Of a DNA stretch of 64,000 nucleotides, positions 5,014-17,516 are shown one piece after another. The first letter of the stretch is position 1, and each line of letters begins with the position of its first letter. The notes under the pieces were generated by a model. It saw nothing but the letters and a program-made list of their open reading frames with translations. It ran no database searches and had not been told where the DNA came from. Where the stretch lies: positions 62,001-126,000 of the forward strand of contig JAGPNE010000002.1 in the NCBI GenBank assembly GCA_018052455.1, written 5' to 3'. Source of the stretch: Candidatus Fermentithermobacillaceae bacterium. Its GTDB lineage: Bacteria > Bacillota > Sulfobacillia > Fermentithermobacillales > Fermentithermobacillaceae. The position numbers were made by a program, and so were the translations under genes.

Positions 5014-5158
5014 GGGACGGCACTTTCTGCTTCACCCTTCATCCTGCTGTTTCGCTTTCAGCACACCCGATACATCCCTTTGCCGCGGGCGTAAAGTATA
5101 ATAGATCCAATTACGTATTAGATAAACCAGTCGACACCAGAAGTTGGGAGGGCCGAAT

Positions 5159-6427
5159 TTGCACCCGAAACTAATAGCTGGTCTAACATTCCTTGCAGTA
5201 TACGCAATGCTTATTTTGCACAAAGGCAAACCACCCCTTGTGGTATGGTCCGGGGCAGCACTGCTTCTCGCCATACGCGTGATAACCCCATCCGAGGCTC
5301 TTGAAAGCATAAACGTGAACGTACTTGGGATTTTCATTGGAACCATGATTCTGTCGAGTTTCCTCATATACTCAAAGGTGCCTGCTTACTTAGCCAGTGT
5401 ACTTGTGACACCTGGCCGCTCTGCTGTAGGTGCCATAATGGCAGTCTGCCTCCTGGCTGGGGCAATTTCCGCGTTTGTAGATAATGTGGCGACAGTATTA
5501 ATGGTAGTGCCTATTGCAATTGAGGTGTCGAAGCGGCTTGAAGTTTCTCCGGTGCCTTTTGTAATCGGGATAGCAGTGTCTGCCAACCTTCAAGGAGCAG
5601 CCACAATGGTTGGCGACTCGACCTCAATACTTCTAGCTTCTGCCGCACGAATGACATTTACGGATTTTTTCTGGATGAACGGCCGTCCAGGAATCTTTTT
5701 CGCTGTTCAGGCAGGGGCAATAGCAGCGTTCTTTGTACTTTATCTTGTCTTCCGAAAAACTTACAAAGGCAGTTGTGTCCCAGTAGAGGAGGTTCACGTA
5801 ACCTCCTGGGTTCCAACTGTCCTCATGTTGACTATGATGGCAACCATGGCTGCTTCAAGTTTTATTCCGAATCGACCCGACTGGGCCTTAGGGGCAATAG
5901 CCATGACGTATGCCGTCTTTGTACTTCTATGGAACGCACTTGCAAGGTACAAGGACATTGATCTACGCCGCAATCTAGACTGGTCAACTGTTCTCCTCTT
6001 GAGCGGCCTTTTCATAGTAGTAGGCAGTCTGACTTCAACAGGCCTTGTCATGGATGCAGCGAACATCATATCGAAGGTAGCCAATGGACATCCTTTTCGT
6101 GCGTATAATGCGATAGTATGGTTCTCAGTTATAGTTTCGGCTTTTGTTGACAACATTCCTTTCACCATGGCTATGCTGCCTACCGCGCAGCTCGTTGCGC
6201 AGAGTCTTGGAACGTCCCAGTACGTCATGATGTTTGGACTATTGCTTGGTACTACTCTCGGAGGGAACATCACGCCAATAGGTGCTTCCGCCAACATTGC
6301 AGCGGTGTCATTACTCAAAAAACAAGGCTATCACGTGTCTTTCTCAGAATTTCTCCACGTAGGTTTGCCTTTTACTTTGACCGCCGTGATTGTAGGATCT
6401 CTCGTTAACTGGGCAATTTGGATGTGA
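5159..6427 (+). CDS. ArsB/NhaD-type (SLC13/P-protein fold) ion or organic anion permease
   Basis: About 422 residues, almost entirely hydrophobic, with around eleven membrane segments and an internal repeat. The first half carries FVDNVATVLMVVPIA and SANLQGAATMVGDSTS; the second carries FVDNIPFTMAMLPTA and GTTLGGNITPIGASAN. These paired motifs are typical of the ion transporter superfamily members ArsB, NhaD and the YbiR/P-protein group. Arsenite, sodium/proton or dicarboxylate transport are all possible and I cannot decide between them. No arsenic genes lie nearby. GGAGG at 5147-5151 selects TTG 5159 as start; the in-frame TTG at 5144 overlaps that site. Confidence 0.85.
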   Translation: MHPKLIAGLTFLAVYAMLILHKGKPPLVVWSGAALLLAIRVITPSEALESINVNVLGIFIGTMILSSFLIYSKVPAYLASVLVTPGRSAVGAIMAVCLLAGAISAFVDNVATVLMVVPIAIEVSKRLEVSPVPFVIGIAVSANLQGAATMVGDSTSILLASAARMTFTDFFWMNGRPGIFFAVQAGAIAAFFVLYLVFRKTYKGSCVPVEEVHVTSWVPTVLMLTMMATMAASSFIPNRPDWALGAIAMTYAVFVLLWNALARYKDIDLRRNLDWSTVLLLSGLFIVVGSLTSTGLVMDAANIISKVANGHPFRAYNAIVWFSVIVSAFVDNIPFTMAMLPTAQLVAQSLGTSQYVMMFGLLLGTTLGGNITPIGASANIAAVSLLKKQGYHVSFSEFLHVGLPFTLTAVIVGSLVNWAIWM

Positions 6428-7183
6428 CCTTTGCAAGCGAAATCTCTCCAATTGCTTTTGGGTGACGTTACCATTAACACGGTGAATATGGTTTCATGAT
6501 AGACAATACGTATGCGTGCCGTCAGCCAGTGACCCTACGTGTTTCCCCCATGCGCCGTTCTATGTTCTGTTCCACCCACGGTCTTTGTGCTCTTCTTAAC
6601 CCAGAGACACCATGTTTTGACTGAAGACCCTTTGTTTTTGCACAGAATCGTTATATGATAGCTTATGCATCGGTGTACCTTCACGCACTCATAAGTGGGC
6701 ACAGGTAGCCACTAGAAGCGATCACTTGTGAGCGCCCTTACCGAAGCGTGAAACTCTTTCAAGGGAAGGGGGTGCAAAACTACACATCTTTGGGAAGTTG
6801 GCCAGCATATTGGCACATGAGTTGTCGAGCACATCATTGGAAAAGTATCTCTAGGCGAACATTCCATTACACAAAGGAGATGTCCAGGCTTGGCTCAAAC
6901 AACTTGCAGCTACTTGGCGCATTTCGCCAAAGCGGTAACGGTCCGGATGGCTTGGACCGGCTTCGCGAGCCCGTTGTCATTGCGCACTTCTCGTACCAAT
7001 CTTCAAAGCATAGAGCAGATGTTGCCGATCTGCGCACTGTACTTGCTGCACGCAAGGACTGCAGTTATCCGCCATTCGCATGTTTTTCTGCCTGGGACTC
7101 CTAGTTACGACTCATTGTTCAATCATTCAATCGCTCAAAGAAAACTCCAATTGGTCTACACATAGAGAATAGGAGGGAAAACC
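6428..7183. other. 756-bp intergenic region with possible eroded coding remnant
   Basis: No intact gene is convincing. A weak promoter-like pair, TTGTTT (6632-6637) and TATGAT (6654-6659) with 16 bases between, could serve the downstream operon and would give a leader of about 500 nt. From about 6770 to 6935 one plus-strand frame reads like real protein, including FGKLASILAHELSSTSLEKY, then a TAG, then LHKGDVQAWLKQLAATWRIS, then a TAA. This suggests a decayed gene, possibly a transposase fragment, but I cannot identify it. The end carries AGGAGGG before the gene at 7184. Confidence 0.4.
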
Positions 7184-7963
7184 ATGATCTTTGAAGGAAG
7201 GGCGTCGATTGGCGTAGCGATGCTCGTGTTTGGCATCGTGTTCCTGTGGAAGGTCTATGCCGCTAGGCATGGCAAACTCCCAGAAATCAGGCGGTTGCCT
7301 GCACTCGACGCTATCGACGAAGCAGTTGGAAGGGCTACAGAGCTAGGAAAGCCCATCCATCAGACTTTGGGAAGCGGCAGCATCACGTCGTCTGCAGCCA
7401 GTCCGATGATACTAGCCGGTATATCAGTATCAAGGTATGTGGCTAGAAAGGCAGCAGAGATGGACACCAGCCTCATCGTAACAGTTGCCGCAGCCGAAAC
7501 TTACTCAGTAGCCGAAGAAGTTGTCCGCACTGCCTACATCGAGGCTGGGAAGCCCGATGCTTTTGACCCGTCGGTAGTCAGGTTCCTTTCACCTGCTCAA
7601 TTCGCGTACACGACAGCTGCAATCGGCATAATGACTCGAGAGCAGGTTGCAGCGAATATCATGATAGGTTATTTTGCGGCAGAATCCTTGATTCTGGCGG
7701 AAACAGGCAACAGCCTTGGCGCCATCCAGATTGCCGGTACTGCCGTCATGCCTCAGATCCCCTTCTTTGTCGTAGCATGCGACTACTGCTTGATAGGAGA
7801 AGAAGTCTATGCCGTGTCTGCCTATCTTGATAGAGAACCTGAGACTTTGGGCACTATCGCAGGGCAGGATGTAGCAAAGGCTATGGCAGCTGTGCTCATA
7901 GTAATAGGTTCAATCGCGGTGACCTTAGGTTCTACTTTCCTTGTGGATCTTTTAGCCAAATAG
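7184..7963 (+). CDS. Uncharacterised membrane protein (DUF6754-like), first gene of a four-gene membrane operon
   Basis: 259 residues. One N-terminal helix (about 8-26) is followed by a conserved-looking stretch beginning RRLPALDAIDEAVGRATE and a small-residue-rich segment (GSGSITSSAASPMILAG). The middle part is amphipathic, and a C-terminal helix lies at about 232-255. From memory the RLPALDAIDEAVGRATELG motif belongs to the family called DUF6754; no function is known to me. The small-residue-rich loop and many Ala/Gly helices suggest packing within a membrane complex. An AGGAGGG site precedes the ATG. The following three genes are closely spaced and also encode membrane proteins, so they very likely form one complex. 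Confidence 0.8.
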   Translation: MIFEGRASIGVAMLVFGIVFLWKVYAARHGKLPEIRRLPALDAIDEAVGRATELGKPIHQTLGSGSITSSAASPMILAGISVSRYVARKAAEMDTSLIVTVAAAETYSVAEEVVRTAYIEAGKPDAFDPSVVRFLSPAQFAYTTAAIGIMTREQVAANIMIGYFAAESLILAETGNSLGAIQIAGTAVMPQIPFFVVACDYCLIGEEVYAVSAYLDREPETLGTIAGQDVAKAMAAVLIVIGSIAVTLGSTFLVDLLAK

Positions 7964-7985
7964 TGTGATAGCGAGGTGATATACA

Positions 7986-8600
7986 ATGAAACGTGTTCTG
8001 CCAGTACTCATAGCTGGCCTTTCTGGATTCTTGATGGTAGCCGACTTTCTGTTCAAGAATGCGTGGCTGCAAAACTTTTCCAAAGACGTTCAGGACTGGA
8101 CAGTGGTGGTAGCTGCCTTTGCTCTAGGGCTTGGGGCGGTATCTCTGATTAGGCTTCATGGTCGCAAGATCTCAAGACGCGAAAAGGGCTGGCTGAATAG
8201 CATTGTTCTTATAGCTGCGATGCTCTTTATGACTCTGCGCGGCATTCTAAACGGGGTAAACGACAAATACTACCTGTTTTTGTTCGACAATATGCTTACT
8301 CCACTTGGGGCGGCGGTATATGCATCGTTGGCTTTTTACGTAGCTTCTGCTGCCTATAGGGCGTTCAGAGCAAGAAGCGTAGAGGCCACTGTTCTTCTTA
8401 TTGCAGGTCTAATAGTACTTCTTGGAAGAGCGCCGATAGGCGACAGCATATCCGCAGCACTTCCTGAAGTTGCCAGCTGGATTATAAACATTCCTAACGT
8501 AGCCGCCCAAAGAGGCATCATTATATGCTCGGCAATTGGAGTTATGTCCACCTCACTGCGCGTCATGCTTGGGCTAGAGCGCAGGTATCTGGGTAGTTGA
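7986..8600 (+). CDS. Uncharacterised polytopic membrane protein, second gene of the operon
   Basis: 204 residues with about six predicted membrane helices (roughly 5-24, 36-56, 70-92, 103-130, 136-155 and 170-195). There are few charged residues apart from basic loops such as RLHGRKISRREKG and the C-terminal LERRYL. I recognise no catalytic motif. It starts 22 bases after the first gene of the cluster with a GAGGTGAT site. Its stop codon sits against the ribosome binding site of the next gene. It may be a channel or anchor subunit, but this is inference from topology only. Confidence 0.8.
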   Translation: MKRVLPVLIAGLSGFLMVADFLFKNAWLQNFSKDVQDWTVVVAAFALGLGAVSLIRLHGRKISRREKGWLNSIVLIAAMLFMTLRGILNGVNDKYYLFLFDNMLTPLGAAVYASLAFYVASAAYRAFRARSVEATVLLIAGLIVLLGRAPIGDSISAALPEVASWIINIPNVAAQRGIIICSAIGVMSTSLRVMLGLERRYLGS

Positions 8601-8614
8601 GGAGGGAGAGCAAA

Positions 8615-9427
8615 ATGGAGAAATTCTTCAATATAGATCGCAGGATCATCTATGTGTTATTGGCCGTGGTTGTTGTAATCCCGCTTCTAAAGCCAATGGG
8701 ACTACCTTTTAGCGTGACGGCTGAAACACAAAAGGCATTCAATGCCGTAGAATCATTGAAACCTGGCGATGTTGTGGTGATGGACTTTGGGTACGACGCA
8801 GGTGGTGCTGCGGAAGTACATCCGCAAGCCGAGGCGTTTTTTGCGCACTGTATGCAAAAGGGTATCCGCGTCATAGCGTATTCGCCTAGCGAGCAAGGCC
8901 CAAGGTTTGCAGATAAAATATGGGAGATATGGAAAGCTCAGGGCAAGGAGTACGGTAAGGACTTTGTAAACCTCGGCTTTTTTGCCGGTGGAGAAGCGGC
9001 CCTGGCCTCGTTTGCCAAGAATATACCCGGCTTTGTGGGTACAGATTACTACAACAATAAGACCGAAGGAATGGAGATCTTCGAGGGTGTACAGACTGTG
9101 GCCGATGTGAATCTGGTTATAAGCATAAATACTGGGTCCATATTGCCGTGCATTCAGTATTTTCACGGGCCATACGGTACTCCTGTGACAGGTGGAGCTA
9201 TAGGTACCCAGATATCTCGATATCAGTCGTACGCTGATGCCGGGCAGCTCAAGGGTTATCTTGCAAGTCTCAGAGGTGCGGCTGAATACGAAAAACTGCT
9301 TGGCATTGCAGGAACAGCTACTGCTTCAATGGATGCTCAGTCAGTCGCGCACCTTTTCATATTTGTCTTGATCGTCCTAGGAAACATTGGTGAATTTGCG
9401 CGCAAAAGACCTAAACAGGCCGCATAA
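8615..9427 (+). CDS. Uncharacterised membrane-anchored soluble domain protein, third gene of the operon
   Basis: About 270 residues with one helix at each end (about 10-28 and 242-260) and a soluble domain of some 200 residues between them. The domain alternates strands and helices in a Rossmann-like pattern, for example GDVVVMDFGYD, GIRVIAYSPSEQGPRFADKI and NLGFFAGGEAALASF. Given the flanking helices it probably faces the outside of the cell and could bind a ligand. I do not recognise the family. GGAGG at 8601-8605 selects ATG 8615 over the upstream TTG 8597. It is the only member of the four-gene set with a large soluble domain, so it is the likeliest recognition or regulatory part. Confidence 0.8.
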   Translation: MEKFFNIDRRIIYVLLAVVVVIPLLKPMGLPFSVTAETQKAFNAVESLKPGDVVVMDFGYDAGGAAEVHPQAEAFFAHCMQKGIRVIAYSPSEQGPRFADKIWEIWKAQGKEYGKDFVNLGFFAGGEAALASFAKNIPGFVGTDYYNNKTEGMEIFEGVQTVADVNLVISINTGSILPCIQYFHGPYGTPVTGGAIGTQISRYQSYADAGQLKGYLASLRGAAEYEKLLGIAGTATASMDAQSVAHLFIFVLIVLGNIGEFARKRPKQAA

Positions 9428-9447
9428 GAAAGGAGGAAGCGAAGCAG

Positions 9448-10044
9448 ATGACTACTGAACTGGGAGTTTGGATAGGTGCTTTTCTTACCCTTGCATTTTG
9501 GAGCATTCTCTTCAAAGAGAATCCAGTCTTTGATCTCGCAGAGCACCTCTACGTGGGGCTTGCGGCCGGGCAGGCTATTGTGATGGGGTGGCTCAACGTA
9601 AAGAACCTGGCAATAGAACCGATGACTACCGAAGGCAAGATTTCCGCTATCATACCGATTGTTCTTGGACTGCTCCTTTATACGAGGTTTGGTAGCGGTA
9701 GCACGAAGTGGTTAAATAGAATACCAACTGCGCTTATGGTTGGAGTCGGTACAGGTTTGGCGTTTACGAGATTTGCCCAATCCGACCTAATGGGCCAGAT
9801 CGTTGGAACTATGCTAAACCTTGGGACTCTAAATAACATCATAATAGTGGTAGGAACACTTTGCACCATTTCTTACTTCTTTTTCACATCAGAAAACAAA
9901 GTCCTGACTGGGACGAACAAAGTAGGGCGAATGATCATGATGATAGCATTTGGCTCTGCATTTGGGAACACGGTTATGGGCAGGCTATCTCTCTTCATAG
10001 GAAGGTTACAATATCTGCTGGGGGACTGGTTGGGAATCTTGTAG
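9448..10044 (+). CDS. Uncharacterised polytopic membrane protein, last gene of the operon
   Basis: 198 residues with roughly five or six membrane helices (about 5-20, 30-50, 65-82, 92-108, 125-150 and 160-185). Glycine-rich segments such as MVGVGTGLAFTRFAQS and IAFGSAFGNTVMGRLS recur near the middle and end. No known motif was recognised. It lies 20 bases behind the third gene, with an AGGAGG site. A small GC hairpin follows the stop (about 10053-10067), so the operon probably ends here. Confidence 0.8.
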   Translation: MTTELGVWIGAFLTLAFWSILFKENPVFDLAEHLYVGLAAGQAIVMGWLNVKNLAIEPMTTEGKISAIIPIVLGLLLYTRFGSGSTKWLNRIPTALMVGVGTGLAFTRFAQSDLMGQIVGTMLNLGTLNNIIIVVGTLCTISYFFFTSENKVLTGTNKVGRMIMMIAFGSAFGNTVMGRLSLFIGRLQYLLGDWLGIL

Positions 10045-10085
10045 GAGCGTTTGAGGCTCAGGGCCTCATTGTTTCATATACCGGG

Positions 10086-10140: not shown

Positions 10141-11454
10141 CTATAGCTCGATAAAACCTCTATCACCGCAGACACTTATAGACGTACCAAACGGCTCCGA
10201 CATTTTCCTTATATCATCAAGGATCTTCTGGGCTTTTTCACCTCTTGCTACAGCCGGCTTGCCCCTTTGTGACCTTGGCTTTTCATGTCCCAGAGAAATG
10301 GGAATAAGCTCTATAGTAGCCAGTTTGTTGTCATTGAAATGGGTTATGGCAATGATGCTCTCCCAATAGACTGGGTCTCCTGGGAAGCCTGACTGGTCGT
10401 TATTGCTTCTTTTGTCATACATATCGGCCGGGGTATCTTCAAGCGTAAGGCCGAACCTGTCGTATATGTCTTGAGGATGCTTGTAGACAAGGTCGTTTTG
10501 GAAAATGAAGTTGCCAAGGCTGTAGAATATGGGCTTGCCGTTATATATCTGTATCCCGCGAAGAACATGAGGGCCATGTCCAATGAACATATCTGCTCCA
10601 GCGTCTATGCAGGCCTTGGCGAACTCTACTATGAAGTCTGCAGGGACAGTCCTGTCTAGTTGAGATTCGTGAGCGTGAAGAGTGAACAGAACCCAATCGG
10701 CCTGTCGCCGTGCATCTTTGATCCATTTGGTTATTTCTTCTACATCCTTTGCATTGGGCTTGGTTTCGATGCCCGGAGTATCAGATTCGACGAAAGTTGC
10801 CTGGCCAATAGAGATTTCTTTCTCCTCTTCTGGTTGCTCCCAGCCCATCTTCTTTGCCTGTTCCTTCGCTGCCCGCAGCCCCAAAGATTCTTCTATCTGT
10901 CCAACGGCCCGAAATTGCTCGCTCGTTACCAAAAACCTTGTTTGGTATCTCAGAGGCGATAGGCCTGGACGGCCTTGGAAGTCGGGTCTGGTATGACCTG
11001 CTCTTCCCCAGGGAGCAAAAGACGAACTTGCGGACAGGAGCGCTACTCTCCCAAAAGGAGTTTCACAGTATGCCGGAGACCTGGCTTCTGCAAGATTCTC
11101 TCCTACTCCTGCGTGGACGATCCCTTTCTTGTTAAGAGTATCAGTAGTTATACGTAGTCCTTCGTATGAATAGTCTAGAGAATGGTTATTTGCCCTCGCG
11201 ACTATCTGAAAGCCGGCCCACTTCAGTTCATCTGCCAGCGCAGTAGGTGCTCCGGCGTAAGTGCCTCCGCTTTGGGCCGCAGGGATTCCCTTGAAATCGT
11301 TTAGAAGCACTTCCAGATTCGTAAAACCTAGATCTTGCGATCTGATGATGTCGAAAACCTCAACAAAGTCAGGCTCCTTGTAGTCTGAAATCTTTGTCGT
11401 GATGAAAGAGTCCCCTGTCAGAGCAATCTTAAAGTTCCTGTTGTTATCGCTCAT
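10141..11454 (-). CDS. CapA family protein (poly-gamma-glutamate capsule-like metallophosphatase fold)
   Basis: About 437 residues of the PGA_cap/CapA family, a calcineurin-like metallophosphatase-related fold. Motifs seen in order are LTGDSF near the N-terminus, FTNLEVLL, VARANNHSLDYSYEG, FTLHAHES and FIGHGPHVLRG followed by YSLGNFIFQND. Family members take part in poly-gamma-glutamate production or act as hydrolases of unknown substrate. No capB, capC or pgs genes are adjacent and no signal peptide is apparent, so a cytoplasmic hydrolase role is equally possible. On the minus strand AGGAGG stands 8 bases before ATG 11454, which I prefer to the GTG at 11463. It is a single-gene unit with its own terminator. 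Confidence 0.85.
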   Translation of the reverse strand: MSDNNRNFKIALTGDSFITTKISDYKEPDFVEVFDIIRSQDLGFTNLEVLLNDFKGIPAAQSGGTYAGAPTALADELKWAGFQIVARANNHSLDYSYEGLRITTDTLNKKGIVHAGVGENLAEARSPAYCETPFGRVALLSASSSFAPWGRAGHTRPDFQGRPGLSPLRYQTRFLVTSEQFRAVGQIEESLGLRAAKEQAKKMGWEQPEEEKEISIGQATFVESDTPGIETKPNAKDVEEITKWIKDARRQADWVLFTLHAHESQLDRTVPADFIVEFAKACIDAGADMFIGHGPHVLRGIQIYNGKPIFYSLGNFIFQNDLVYKHPQDIYDRFGLTLEDTPADMYDKRSNNDQSGFPGDPVYWESIIAITHFNDNKLATIELIPISLGHEKPRSQRGKPAVARGEKAQKILDDIRKMSEPFGTSISVCGDRGFIEL

Positions 11455-11690
11455 ACCAAACACCTCCTGTAGGTGGTATTCGTCATTTCATGTCAGCCTC
11501 CTGCACGAATTATGTCACTACATTGGCTTGTGTTCCATCCTTAAGATGAAGAGGAATTCGTTCTGGACGCCCCTAAGGCATACAGGGACAACCTTTTGAC
11601 CTATAACTGATCTTGATATATGGGATTGATTTTGATGGTGTAGAAGTATATTGATGAAGTAGACTTGAAAAGAGAAAGGAAGGGATCTCA

Positions 11691-13272: not shown

Positions 13273-13358
13273 GGAGAGGTACCCAAGTGGCCAAAGGGGG
13301 CAGACTGTAAATCTGTTGGCGGACGCCTTCGCTGGTTCGAATCCAGCCCTCTCCACCA
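13273..13358 (+). tRNA. tRNA-Tyr (GTA)
   Basis: An 86-nt class II tRNA with a long variable arm. The acceptor GGAGAGG pairs with CCTCTCC, the anticodon loop CTGTAAA gives GTA, the T-loop is GGTTCGAATCC and CCA is encoded. First of three tRNAs before tuf. Confidence 0.95.
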
Positions 13359-13369
13359 TAAAGTAACGA

Positions 13370-13446
<77 letters not shown>

Positions 13447-13465
13447 AATTTGCAGTATCCGTGGT

Positions 13466-13541
13466 GCTCACATAGCTCAGTAGGCAGAGCGCATCCTTGG
13501 TAAGGATGAGGTCACCGGTTCGATTCCGGTTGTGAGCTCCA
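13466..13541 (+). tRNA. tRNA-Thr (GGT)
   Basis: 76 nt. The acceptor GCTCACA pairs with TGTGAGC, the anticodon loop TTGGTAA gives GGT, and CCA is encoded. It precedes the tuf gene by about 110 bases. Confidence 0.95.
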
Positions 13542-17322: not shown

Positions 17323-17359
17323 CAGCAACAACTAGATTCTTGATAAACTGAATAACGTG

Positions 17360-17481
17360 AACCTAAGACAGCAGGTGTGAAAACGTAATGGTCTTCTGAG
17401 GAAGGCCGCCTGCCGAGGTTAGACTCTTTATGGATTTACCTAAGAACTATAAGGGCCTATGCCTCGTGCAGGGCCCTTTTT
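17360..17481 (+). ncRNA. Ribosomal protein L10 leader with attenuator
   Basis: Between rplA and rplJ is a structured leader of the L10-leader type. AACCT (17360-17364) pairs with AGGTT (17416-17420), and GCAGG (17371-17375) pairs with CCTGC (17409-17413) around a long internal arm. Downstream an intrinsic terminator pairs 17451-17457 with 17472-17478 and ends in TTTTT (17477-17481). In this family the L10(L12) complex binds the leader and lowers expression of rplJ-rplL; the terminator implies attenuation. Confidence 0.85.
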
Positions 17482-17516
17482 GATGTCAGTAGGCGGTCGA
17501 GATGGGAGGGATATTG

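What the first reader, a model, noticed from the sequence alone, without database searches (positions are those of the whole stretch)
7184..10044. Four-gene membrane operon with no recognised function: best candidate for an undescribed system
Four closely spaced genes, each with its own good ribosome binding site, all encode membrane proteins: a small-residue-rich protein that I recall as DUF6754-like, two polytopic proteins, and a protein with a Rossmann-like soluble domain between two end helices. None has a transport, nuclease or ATPase motif, and no helper enzyme is in the operon. The composition suggests a multi-subunit membrane complex, with the third gene as recognition or regulatory part.
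Basis: partly seen in the sequence, partly recalled or inferred. Interest (0 to 1): 0.8.

Follow-up and report, generated by a model that had tools for sequence, protein, structure and literature searches.

The report
Undescribed ATPase-linked bacterial membrane complex
A four-gene membrane complex of unknown function, present in 15 diverged copies in one small genome and as a single copy across many other bacteria, consistently accompanies an unusual ATPase and its partner protein, so it is probably a previously undescribed ATP-driven membrane machine, perhaps a family of nutrient transporters.

Summary
The four membrane genes are real. Gene 1 is DUF6754 (E 3.6e-85); genes 2-4 match no family. 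The host is a Fermentithermobacillaceae MAG (Bacillota) of 1.54 Mb. It carries 15 complete, diverged copies of the operon (~43 kb, ~2.8% of the assembly). All 92 complete operons in the cassette survey keep the order g1-g2-g3-g4.

First, the operon is a dispersed cassette. Outside this host's lineage it is often single-copy, inside a larger locus: small TM protein-g1-g2-g3-g4-MutL-type ASKHA ATPase-barrel-sandwich protein (Bacillota), or x8-g1-g2-g3-g4-ATPase-barrel (Chloroflexota and some Bacillota). In the host, that locus survives without g1-g4. Second, every DUF6754-positive genome in the class (49/49) also encodes the barrel protein; 98 genomes have neither.

Best mechanism (inferred): g1-g4 form a membrane module, g3's domain outside and g1's inside, energised by the shared ATPase/barrel pair; most likely solute uptake, with paralogous cassettes differing in specificity. 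Complex and ATPase link are well supported; transport is not shown. Amide-hydrolase genes in the ancestral locus hint at peptide or amino-acid-derivative substrates; enrichment near dispersed cassettes is weak (p~0.03). No DUF6754 literature was found.

The parts
7171..7177 (+). ribosome binding site of gene 1 (AGGAGGG)
   Evidence: sequence
7184..7963 (+). gene 1 (g1), DUF6754 / PF20539, 259 aa; two terminal TM helices around an alpha/beta domain predicted to face the cytoplasm
   Evidence: Pfam E 3.6e-85; AF2 pLDDT 92.1, pTM 0.84; positive-inside count 5.6 vs 1.6
7986..8600 (+). gene 2 (g2), 204 aa, six predicted TM segments, no known family
8600..8608 (+). ribosome binding site of gene 3 (AGGAGGGAG)
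   Evidence: sequence
8615..9427 (+). gene 3 (g3), 270 aa from ATG 8615 (TTG 8597 less likely); two terminal TM helices around a Rossmann-like alpha/beta domain predicted to face outside
   Evidence: AF2 pLDDT 94.7, pTM 0.89; topology; no fold match above TM-score ~0.35 normalised to the query
9431..9436 (+). ribosome binding site of gene 4 (AGGAGG)
   Evidence: sequence
9448..10044 (+). gene 4 (g4), 198 aa, about six predicted TM segments, no known family
10052..10068 (+). terminator-like hairpin that closes the four-gene unit
   Evidence: consensus scan; weak on its own

Best explanation
g1-g4 encode one four-subunit membrane complex: g2 and g4 form a polytopic core, g3 carries an extracytoplasmic alpha/beta domain, g1 carries a cytoplasmic alpha/beta domain. 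It is powered or reset by a cytosolic MutL-type ASKHA ATPase acting with a barrel-sandwich/KOW protein. In single-copy genomes this energiser is encoded in the same locus; in this lineage the membrane module was copied out as dispersed four-gene cassettes that share a few ATPase/barrel pairs made in trans. Most likely function (inferred): ATP-dependent uptake of small organic solutes, g3 as receptor, g2/g4 as path, g1 as docking point for the shared ATPase, the paralogues differing in substrate. The ancestral locus points to peptides or N-acyl/D-amino-acid derivatives. Shown by sequence: the cassette, its conservation, selection, the link to the barrel protein and ATPase, the copy numbers. Inferred: physical assembly, topology, ATPase-driven action, transport, substrate class.
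For: Invariant g1-g2-g3-g4 order in 92/92 complete operons and in all 45 loci of an earlier overlapping set; co-inheritance as units (distance-matrix correlations 0.60-0.78 among the 15 paralogues; permutation p <= 0.001 in all six comparisons); dN/dS 0.012-0.050. Locus with ATPase and barrel directly after g4 in Bacillota single-copy genomes, in further Bacillota families and in most of 20 Chloroflexota loci. In the own genome the same locus (S58-sTM-ATPase-barrel-x8-ATPase-barrel, L074) persists without g1-g4. 49/49 DUF6754+ genomes of the class carry the barrel protein, 7 barrel only, 98 neither (Fisher 5e-33). 15 membrane cassettes versus 4 ATPase/barrel pairs: many modules, few energisers. 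g1, which would face the shared partner, is the most conserved subunit between the two closest copies; g3, which would face outside, the least (dN 0.017 vs 0.087). Ancestral locus holds S58, asparaginase II, M55 and M20 amide hydrolases. A relative, Ca. F. carboniphilus, is predicted to ferment peptides and amino acids (PMC10215811).
Against: No transporter, ATPase or receptor signature in any of the four proteins. g1 and g3 folds match no solved structure usefully, so 'receptor' is by position only. Enrichment of M20/amidohydrolase genes beside dispersed cassettes is marginal (p about 0.03 in one complete genome), and no riboswitch that would name a substrate precedes the cassettes. Ca. F. 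carboniphilus already has several peptide/amino-acid ABC transporters (PMC10215811), and no known transporter is driven by an ASKHA ATPase (own knowledge). The Fisher test ignores shared ancestry. One genome (G648) has a truncated DUF6754 hit and no barrel protein. The ATPase itself was searched genome-wide only in the own genome; elsewhere it was seen by neighbourhood.
Confidence: 0.4

Rival explanations
1. An ATPase-coupled sensing complex: g3 binds an outside ligand, g2/g4 transmit, g1 changes state inside, and the ASKHA ATPase/barrel pair acts as downstream effector or resets the complex. Fifteen copies would be fifteen sensors.
For: Soluble domains predicted on both sides of the membrane; diverged paralogues with varied neighbours; Chloroflexota g3 has a long predicted-cytosolic tail with Zn ribbons and up to 64 [P/T]xWL motifs, a multivalent docking array.
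Against: Two six-TM subunits are more than signalling needs; no output domain (kinase, cyclase, methyl-accepting, regulator) occurs in the locus; neighbours include catabolic enzymes rather than constant regulators.
Confidence: 0.2
2. A membrane-associated chaperone/reactivation or maturation machine: the MutL-type ATPase works as its B12-enzyme reactivase relatives do, remodelling a membrane-bound client, and g1-g4 form the client or its platform.
For: The ATPase is homologous to GlmL over its first ~450 residues (hhalign 100%); the fifth MutL of this genome sits beside ornithine 4,5-aminomutase.
Against: No B12 enzyme in the locus; the ATPases have a conserved C-terminal extension and a barrel partner that GlmL lacks; a housekeeping maturation role does not explain 15 cassettes to 4 ATPases.
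Confidence: 0.15
3. An ion- or electron-translocating complex, with the RnfC/NqrA-like barrel protein as the cytosolic subunit.
For: Barrel protein matches RnfC_N and NQRA_N domains.
Against: The matches cover only the generic barrel-sandwich fold, equally like biotinyl, lipoyl and membrane-fusion proteins; no other Rnf or Nqr subunit family is matched by g1-g4; no conserved cysteine or histidine set among the invariant residues of g1-g4. Fifteen copies would be odd.
Confidence: 0.05
4. An exporter or assembly apparatus for a surface product (peptide, lipid or S-layer component), with the amide hydrolases as processing enzymes.
For: S58 and M55 enzymes beside the ancestral locus; transport direction is not constrained by any result here.
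Against: No constant precursor gene beside the cassettes; an extracytoplasmic receptor-like domain tethered by two helices fits uptake as well or better.
Confidence: 0.15

Closest known systems
DUF6754 (PF20539)
   Same: gene 1 is a full-length member (E 3.6e-85, 10-253 of 257)
   Different: a name only: no function, no solved relative by sequence, no paper in the searched library; Pfam describes neither the other three subunits nor the ATPase link
Energy-coupling factor (ECF) transporters
   Same: architecture by analogy: many substrate-specific membrane modules, each without its own ATPase, sharing few energisers encoded elsewhere (PMC7755397)
   Different: no ABC ATPase, EcfT or S-component family is matched; the membrane module has four subunits with soluble domains; the putative energiser is an ASKHA ATPase
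GlmL/MutL accessory ATPase of glutamate and ornithine mutases (PF13941)
   Same: the partner ATPase belongs to this superfamily (E 3.7e-122 for L057; conserved D-x-GSTTTK motif)
   Different: about 150 extra C-terminal residues, regular neighbour of the barrel protein and, in the ancestral locus, of g4, no B12 enzyme; the true mutase-linked member is a separate gene (L077)
RnfC / NqrA (barrel-sandwich hybrid domain)
   Same: partner protein has domains of this fold (E 2.4e-10)
   Different: no other Rnf/Nqr subunit; the C-terminal part resembles a KOW domain
Dpp-type peptide ABC systems with DppA (M55)
   Same: M55 D-aminopeptidase next to a membrane system in the ancestral locus; DppA beside a peptide transporter is own knowledge
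   Different: no ABC permease, ATPase or substrate-binding protein in the cassette

Membership tests
DUF6754 (PF20539) | match above Pfam gathering score over the full model | tested here: met
   285.6 bits vs cut-off 27, model 10-253/257
ECF transporter | ABC-type ATPases (EcfA/A') with Walker motifs in the system | tested here: not met
   no ABC ATPase match in g1-g4 nor in the ATPase and barrel partners, which are PF13941 and barrel-sandwich
ECF transporter | S-component or EcfT fold in the membrane subunits | tested here: inconclusive
   no significant Pfam or NCBIfam match for g2 and g4 and no PDB sequence match below E 0.5; their folds were not predicted
ECF-like organisation (works like, not member) | more membrane modules than energisers in one genome, encoded apart | tested here: met
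   15 cassettes vs 4 ATPase/barrel pairs; in complete genome G019/G156 14 DUF6754 hits, two truncated, vs 6 barrel matches
ECF-like organisation (works like, not member) | different modules compete for the same energiser and move different substrates | not testable with these tools
   needs reconstitution
GlmL/MutL reactivase | PF13941 ATPase domain | tested here: met
   partner ATPase
GlmL/MutL reactivase | encoded with a B12-dependent mutase | tested here: not met
   locus holds g1-g4, barrel protein and amide hydrolases instead; the mutase-linked MutL is a different gene
Rnf / Na+-NQR | membrane subunits RnfA/D/E/G or NqrB/D/E | tested here: not met
   no such Pfam match in g1-g4 at E up to 10
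anti-phage defence system | match to a known defence component | tested here: not met
   PADLOC none for g1-g4, ATPase and barrel
bacteriophage module | match to a phage protein family | tested here: not met
   PHROGs none for g1-g4

The most novel reading that the evidence does not exclude
A new class of primary membrane transporter: an exchangeable four-subunit membrane module (DUF6754-g2-g3-g4) energised by a shared MutL-type ASKHA ATPase with a barrel-sandwich adaptor, the first transport system driven by the actin/Hsp70/hexokinase ATPase fold, conserved from Chloroflexota to Bacillota and radiated into 15 paralogues in one genome.
Probability: 0.3. Interest if true: 0.92.

Novelty: categorically new. 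Interest (0 to 1): 0.72.

Why it matters
About 2.8% of this small genome (about 43 kb, ~60 genes) is one kind of machine that has no described function, and a complete relative carries a similar load. The same machine is single-copy in about a fifth of sampled Chloroflexota, apparently including cultivated Chloroflexus and Roseiflexus strains, so it is open to experiment. If the ATPase coupling is right, it is a membrane machine driven by an ATPase superfamily not known to power transport (own knowledge), with a hub-and-modules design reached independently of ECF transporters. The genetic link makes the function directly testable: ATPase mutants, pull-downs and uptake assays.

Tried and rejected
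Known-family search for g2-g4 in Pfam, NCBIfam, PADLOC, PHROGs and by profile against PDB sequences: nothing significant. Are g2 and g4, or g1 and g3, related to each other? No evidence (hhalign probability 1-3%). Foldseek of confident g3 and g1 models against PDB: only generic alpha/beta matches, TM-score normalised to the query at most ~0.35. Riboswitch or T-box in front of cassettes to name the substrate: none; two cobalamin riboswitches in fetched loci lie kilobases away from the cassettes. Constant extra gene beside the dispersed cassettes: none, 303 neighbours fall in 223 clusters. Enrichment of M20/D-aminoacylase-type genes near cassettes: weak, p about 0.03, in one complete genome with the listed matches only. 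Literature on DUF6754, on Fermentithermobacillaceae and on MutL with Chloroflexus: no description of this locus. Assembly artefact or recent duplication: rejected, because the 15 copies are on average 36-42% identical and lie in about ten separate clades, most shared with other genomes, and complete genomes also carry many copies. Label error: L029 was wrongly tagged ATPase-linked in the tree; it does not affect the conclusions.

Full report
WHAT IS THERE. Four co-directional genes, g1 7184-7963, g2 7986-8600, g3 8615-9427 and g4 9448-10044, each follow a strong ribosome binding site, and a terminator-like hairpin follows g4. g1 is a full-length DUF6754 protein (PF20539, E 3.6e-85); g2, g3 and g4 match nothing significant in Pfam or NCBIfam, and all four match nothing in PADLOC or PHROGs. 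Profiles of all four find no relative of solved structure. Selection is strong: dN/dS against the closest relative is 0.012, 0.045, 0.050 and 0.036.

THE HOST. The window lies in a 1.54-Mb MAG, 92% complete. The closest relatives are Candidatus Fermentithermobacillaceae (97% identical DUF6754 protein in L023). Candidatus Fermentithermobacillus carboniphilus, a relative with a complete genome, is predicted to be a thermophilic fermenter of peptides, amino acids and N-acetylglucosamine (PMC10215811).

FIFTEEN COPIES. DUF6754 occurs 15 times in this genome, and every copy is a complete g1-g2-g3-g4 operon with unrelated flanks, about 43 kb or 2.8% of the assembly. The paralogues are old: mean identity 42% (g1), 37% (g2), 36% (g3) and 38% (g4), and they fall in about ten clades of a concatenated tree, most of them shared with other genomes. 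The four genes are inherited together: pairwise distance matrices correlate at 0.60-0.78, permutation p at most 0.001 in all six comparisons. The complete genome CP062796 has 14 DUF6754 matches, two of them truncated, so high copy number is not an assembly artefact; decayed copies are also seen in other genomes. A complete 3.83-Mb genome of another family (G856) has six full operons in tandem. In the cassette survey, 92 of 92 complete operons keep the order, with median gaps of 18-27 bases.

THE MISSING PARTNER. Outside the family, many genomes have one copy, and there the neighbourhood is rich and constant. In Bacillota of the same class the locus reads: S58 peptidase, asparaginase II, M55 D-aminopeptidase, sometimes M20 peptidase, a small TM protein, g1, g2, g3, g4, a MutL-type ASKHA ATPase of about 610 aa, a barrel-sandwich protein of about 450 aa, a small protein (x8), a second ATPase; a second barrel gene follows where the fetched region reaches that far, as in L074. 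In Chloroflexota (86 of 400 sampled genomes, single copy) and in further Bacillota families it reads x8, g1, g2, g3, g4, ATPase, barrel. In the own genome the ancestral locus survives on contig C21 (L074) as S58, small TM protein, ATPase, barrel, x8, ATPase, barrel, with g1-g4 absent from between the small TM gene and the first ATPase. Two more ATPase/barrel pairs lie on C20 and C17. A fifth MutL belongs to an ornithine 4,5-aminomutase cluster and is the canonical mutase-linked type.

CO-OCCURRENCE. Of 154 genomes in the class, 49 have DUF6754 and all 49 have the barrel protein; 7 have barrel only; 98 have neither (Fisher 5e-33, not corrected for ancestry). Outside the class, 17 of 18 tested DUF6754-positive genomes have it; the exception, G648, has a truncated DUF6754 match. 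The ATPase was searched genome-wide only in the own genome; elsewhere its link rests on neighbourhood.

ANATOMY. AlphaFold2 models are confident: g3 pLDDT 94.7, pTM 0.89; g1 pLDDT 92.1, pTM 0.84. Both are alpha/beta domains between two terminal TM helices. Positive-inside counts put the g1 domain in the cytoplasm and the g3 domain outside; g2 and g4 have about six TM segments. Neither fold has a useful PDB match. The barrel protein has biotinyl/lipoyl-like barrel-sandwich domains and a KOW-like end. The ATPases match GlmL over its whole length and add about 150 conserved C-terminal residues. In Chloroflexota g3 has a long predicted-cytosolic tail, often with Zn-ribbon CxxC pairs and mostly with tandem [P/T]xWL motifs, up to 64 copies against at most 7 in shuffles, which looks like a docking array.

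HOW IT MOST LIKELY WORKS. Shown: a conserved four-gene membrane module, linked by locus and by co-occurrence to an ATPase/barrel module, with more membrane modules than energisers in this lineage. Inferred: the proteins form one complex, the ATPase drives or resets it, and the cassettes are specificity variants sharing energisers, as S-components share an ECF module (analogy, PMC7755397). Transport, probably uptake, is the best guess: an outside soluble domain, two polytopic subunits, an inside domain that is the most conserved part between the closest copies, and a radiation in a peptide-fermenting lineage. Amide hydrolases in the ancestral locus suggest peptide or amino-acid-derivative substrates. 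Around dispersed cassettes this signal is weak: M20 and Amidohydro_3 genes lie near cassettes in the complete genome more than expected, 5 versus 1.57 within 3 kb, p about 0.03, and no riboswitch names a substrate. I put transport at about 0.4, sensing 0.2, export/assembly 0.15, chaperone-type remodelling 0.15, ion or electron translocation 0.05.

NOVELTY. DUF6754 has a Pfam name only; no paper in the searched library mentions it. I found no described system with this composition. It is not an ECF, ABC, Rnf/Nqr or defence system by the features tested. The kind of system appears new; its function is not established.

Noticed in passing
L112, L113, L118, L111 and other Chloroflexota loci, g3 N-terminal tails: Predicted cytosolic tails of 190-1336 aa, often with N-terminal Zn-ribbon CxxC pairs and mostly with tandem [P/T]xWL motifs (up to 64 copies, far above shuffled sequence); a possible multivalent docking array absent from the Bacillota versions.
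   Followed up: partly
L123-L124 (G856:C1:2074-2097 kb): Six complete g1-g2-g3-g4 operons in a direct tandem array in a complete 3.83-Mb genome; barrel genes lie elsewhere in that genome.
   Followed up: partly
L162, L147, L174: Decaying cassettes (split g2, isolated g1 and g4 remnants), indicating birth and death of copies.
   Followed up: partly
L077 (G000:C29:132-144.7 kb): Ornithine degradation-type cluster with D-ornithine 4,5-aminomutase and a canonical MutL/GlmL ATPase.
   Followed up: partly
window 10141-11463 (-): PGA_cap (capsule synthesis type, PF09587) protein convergent with the operon, with its own facing terminator-like hairpin.
   Followed up: no
window 5144-6427 (+): CitMHS-type transporter, closest NCBIfam profile MamN (far below cut-off), upstream of the operon and conserved there in L023 but not in L024.
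   Followed up: no
window 17344-17491 (+): Ribosomal protein L10 leader (RF00557), and tRNA genes at 13273-13538, 15197 and 57953.
   Followed up: no
L042 10913-11523; L038 3865-4462; L039 15900-17215: tRNA gene clusters within a few kilobases of three cassettes (one lies between two divergent cassettes), possibly a sign of insertion preference.
   Followed up: no
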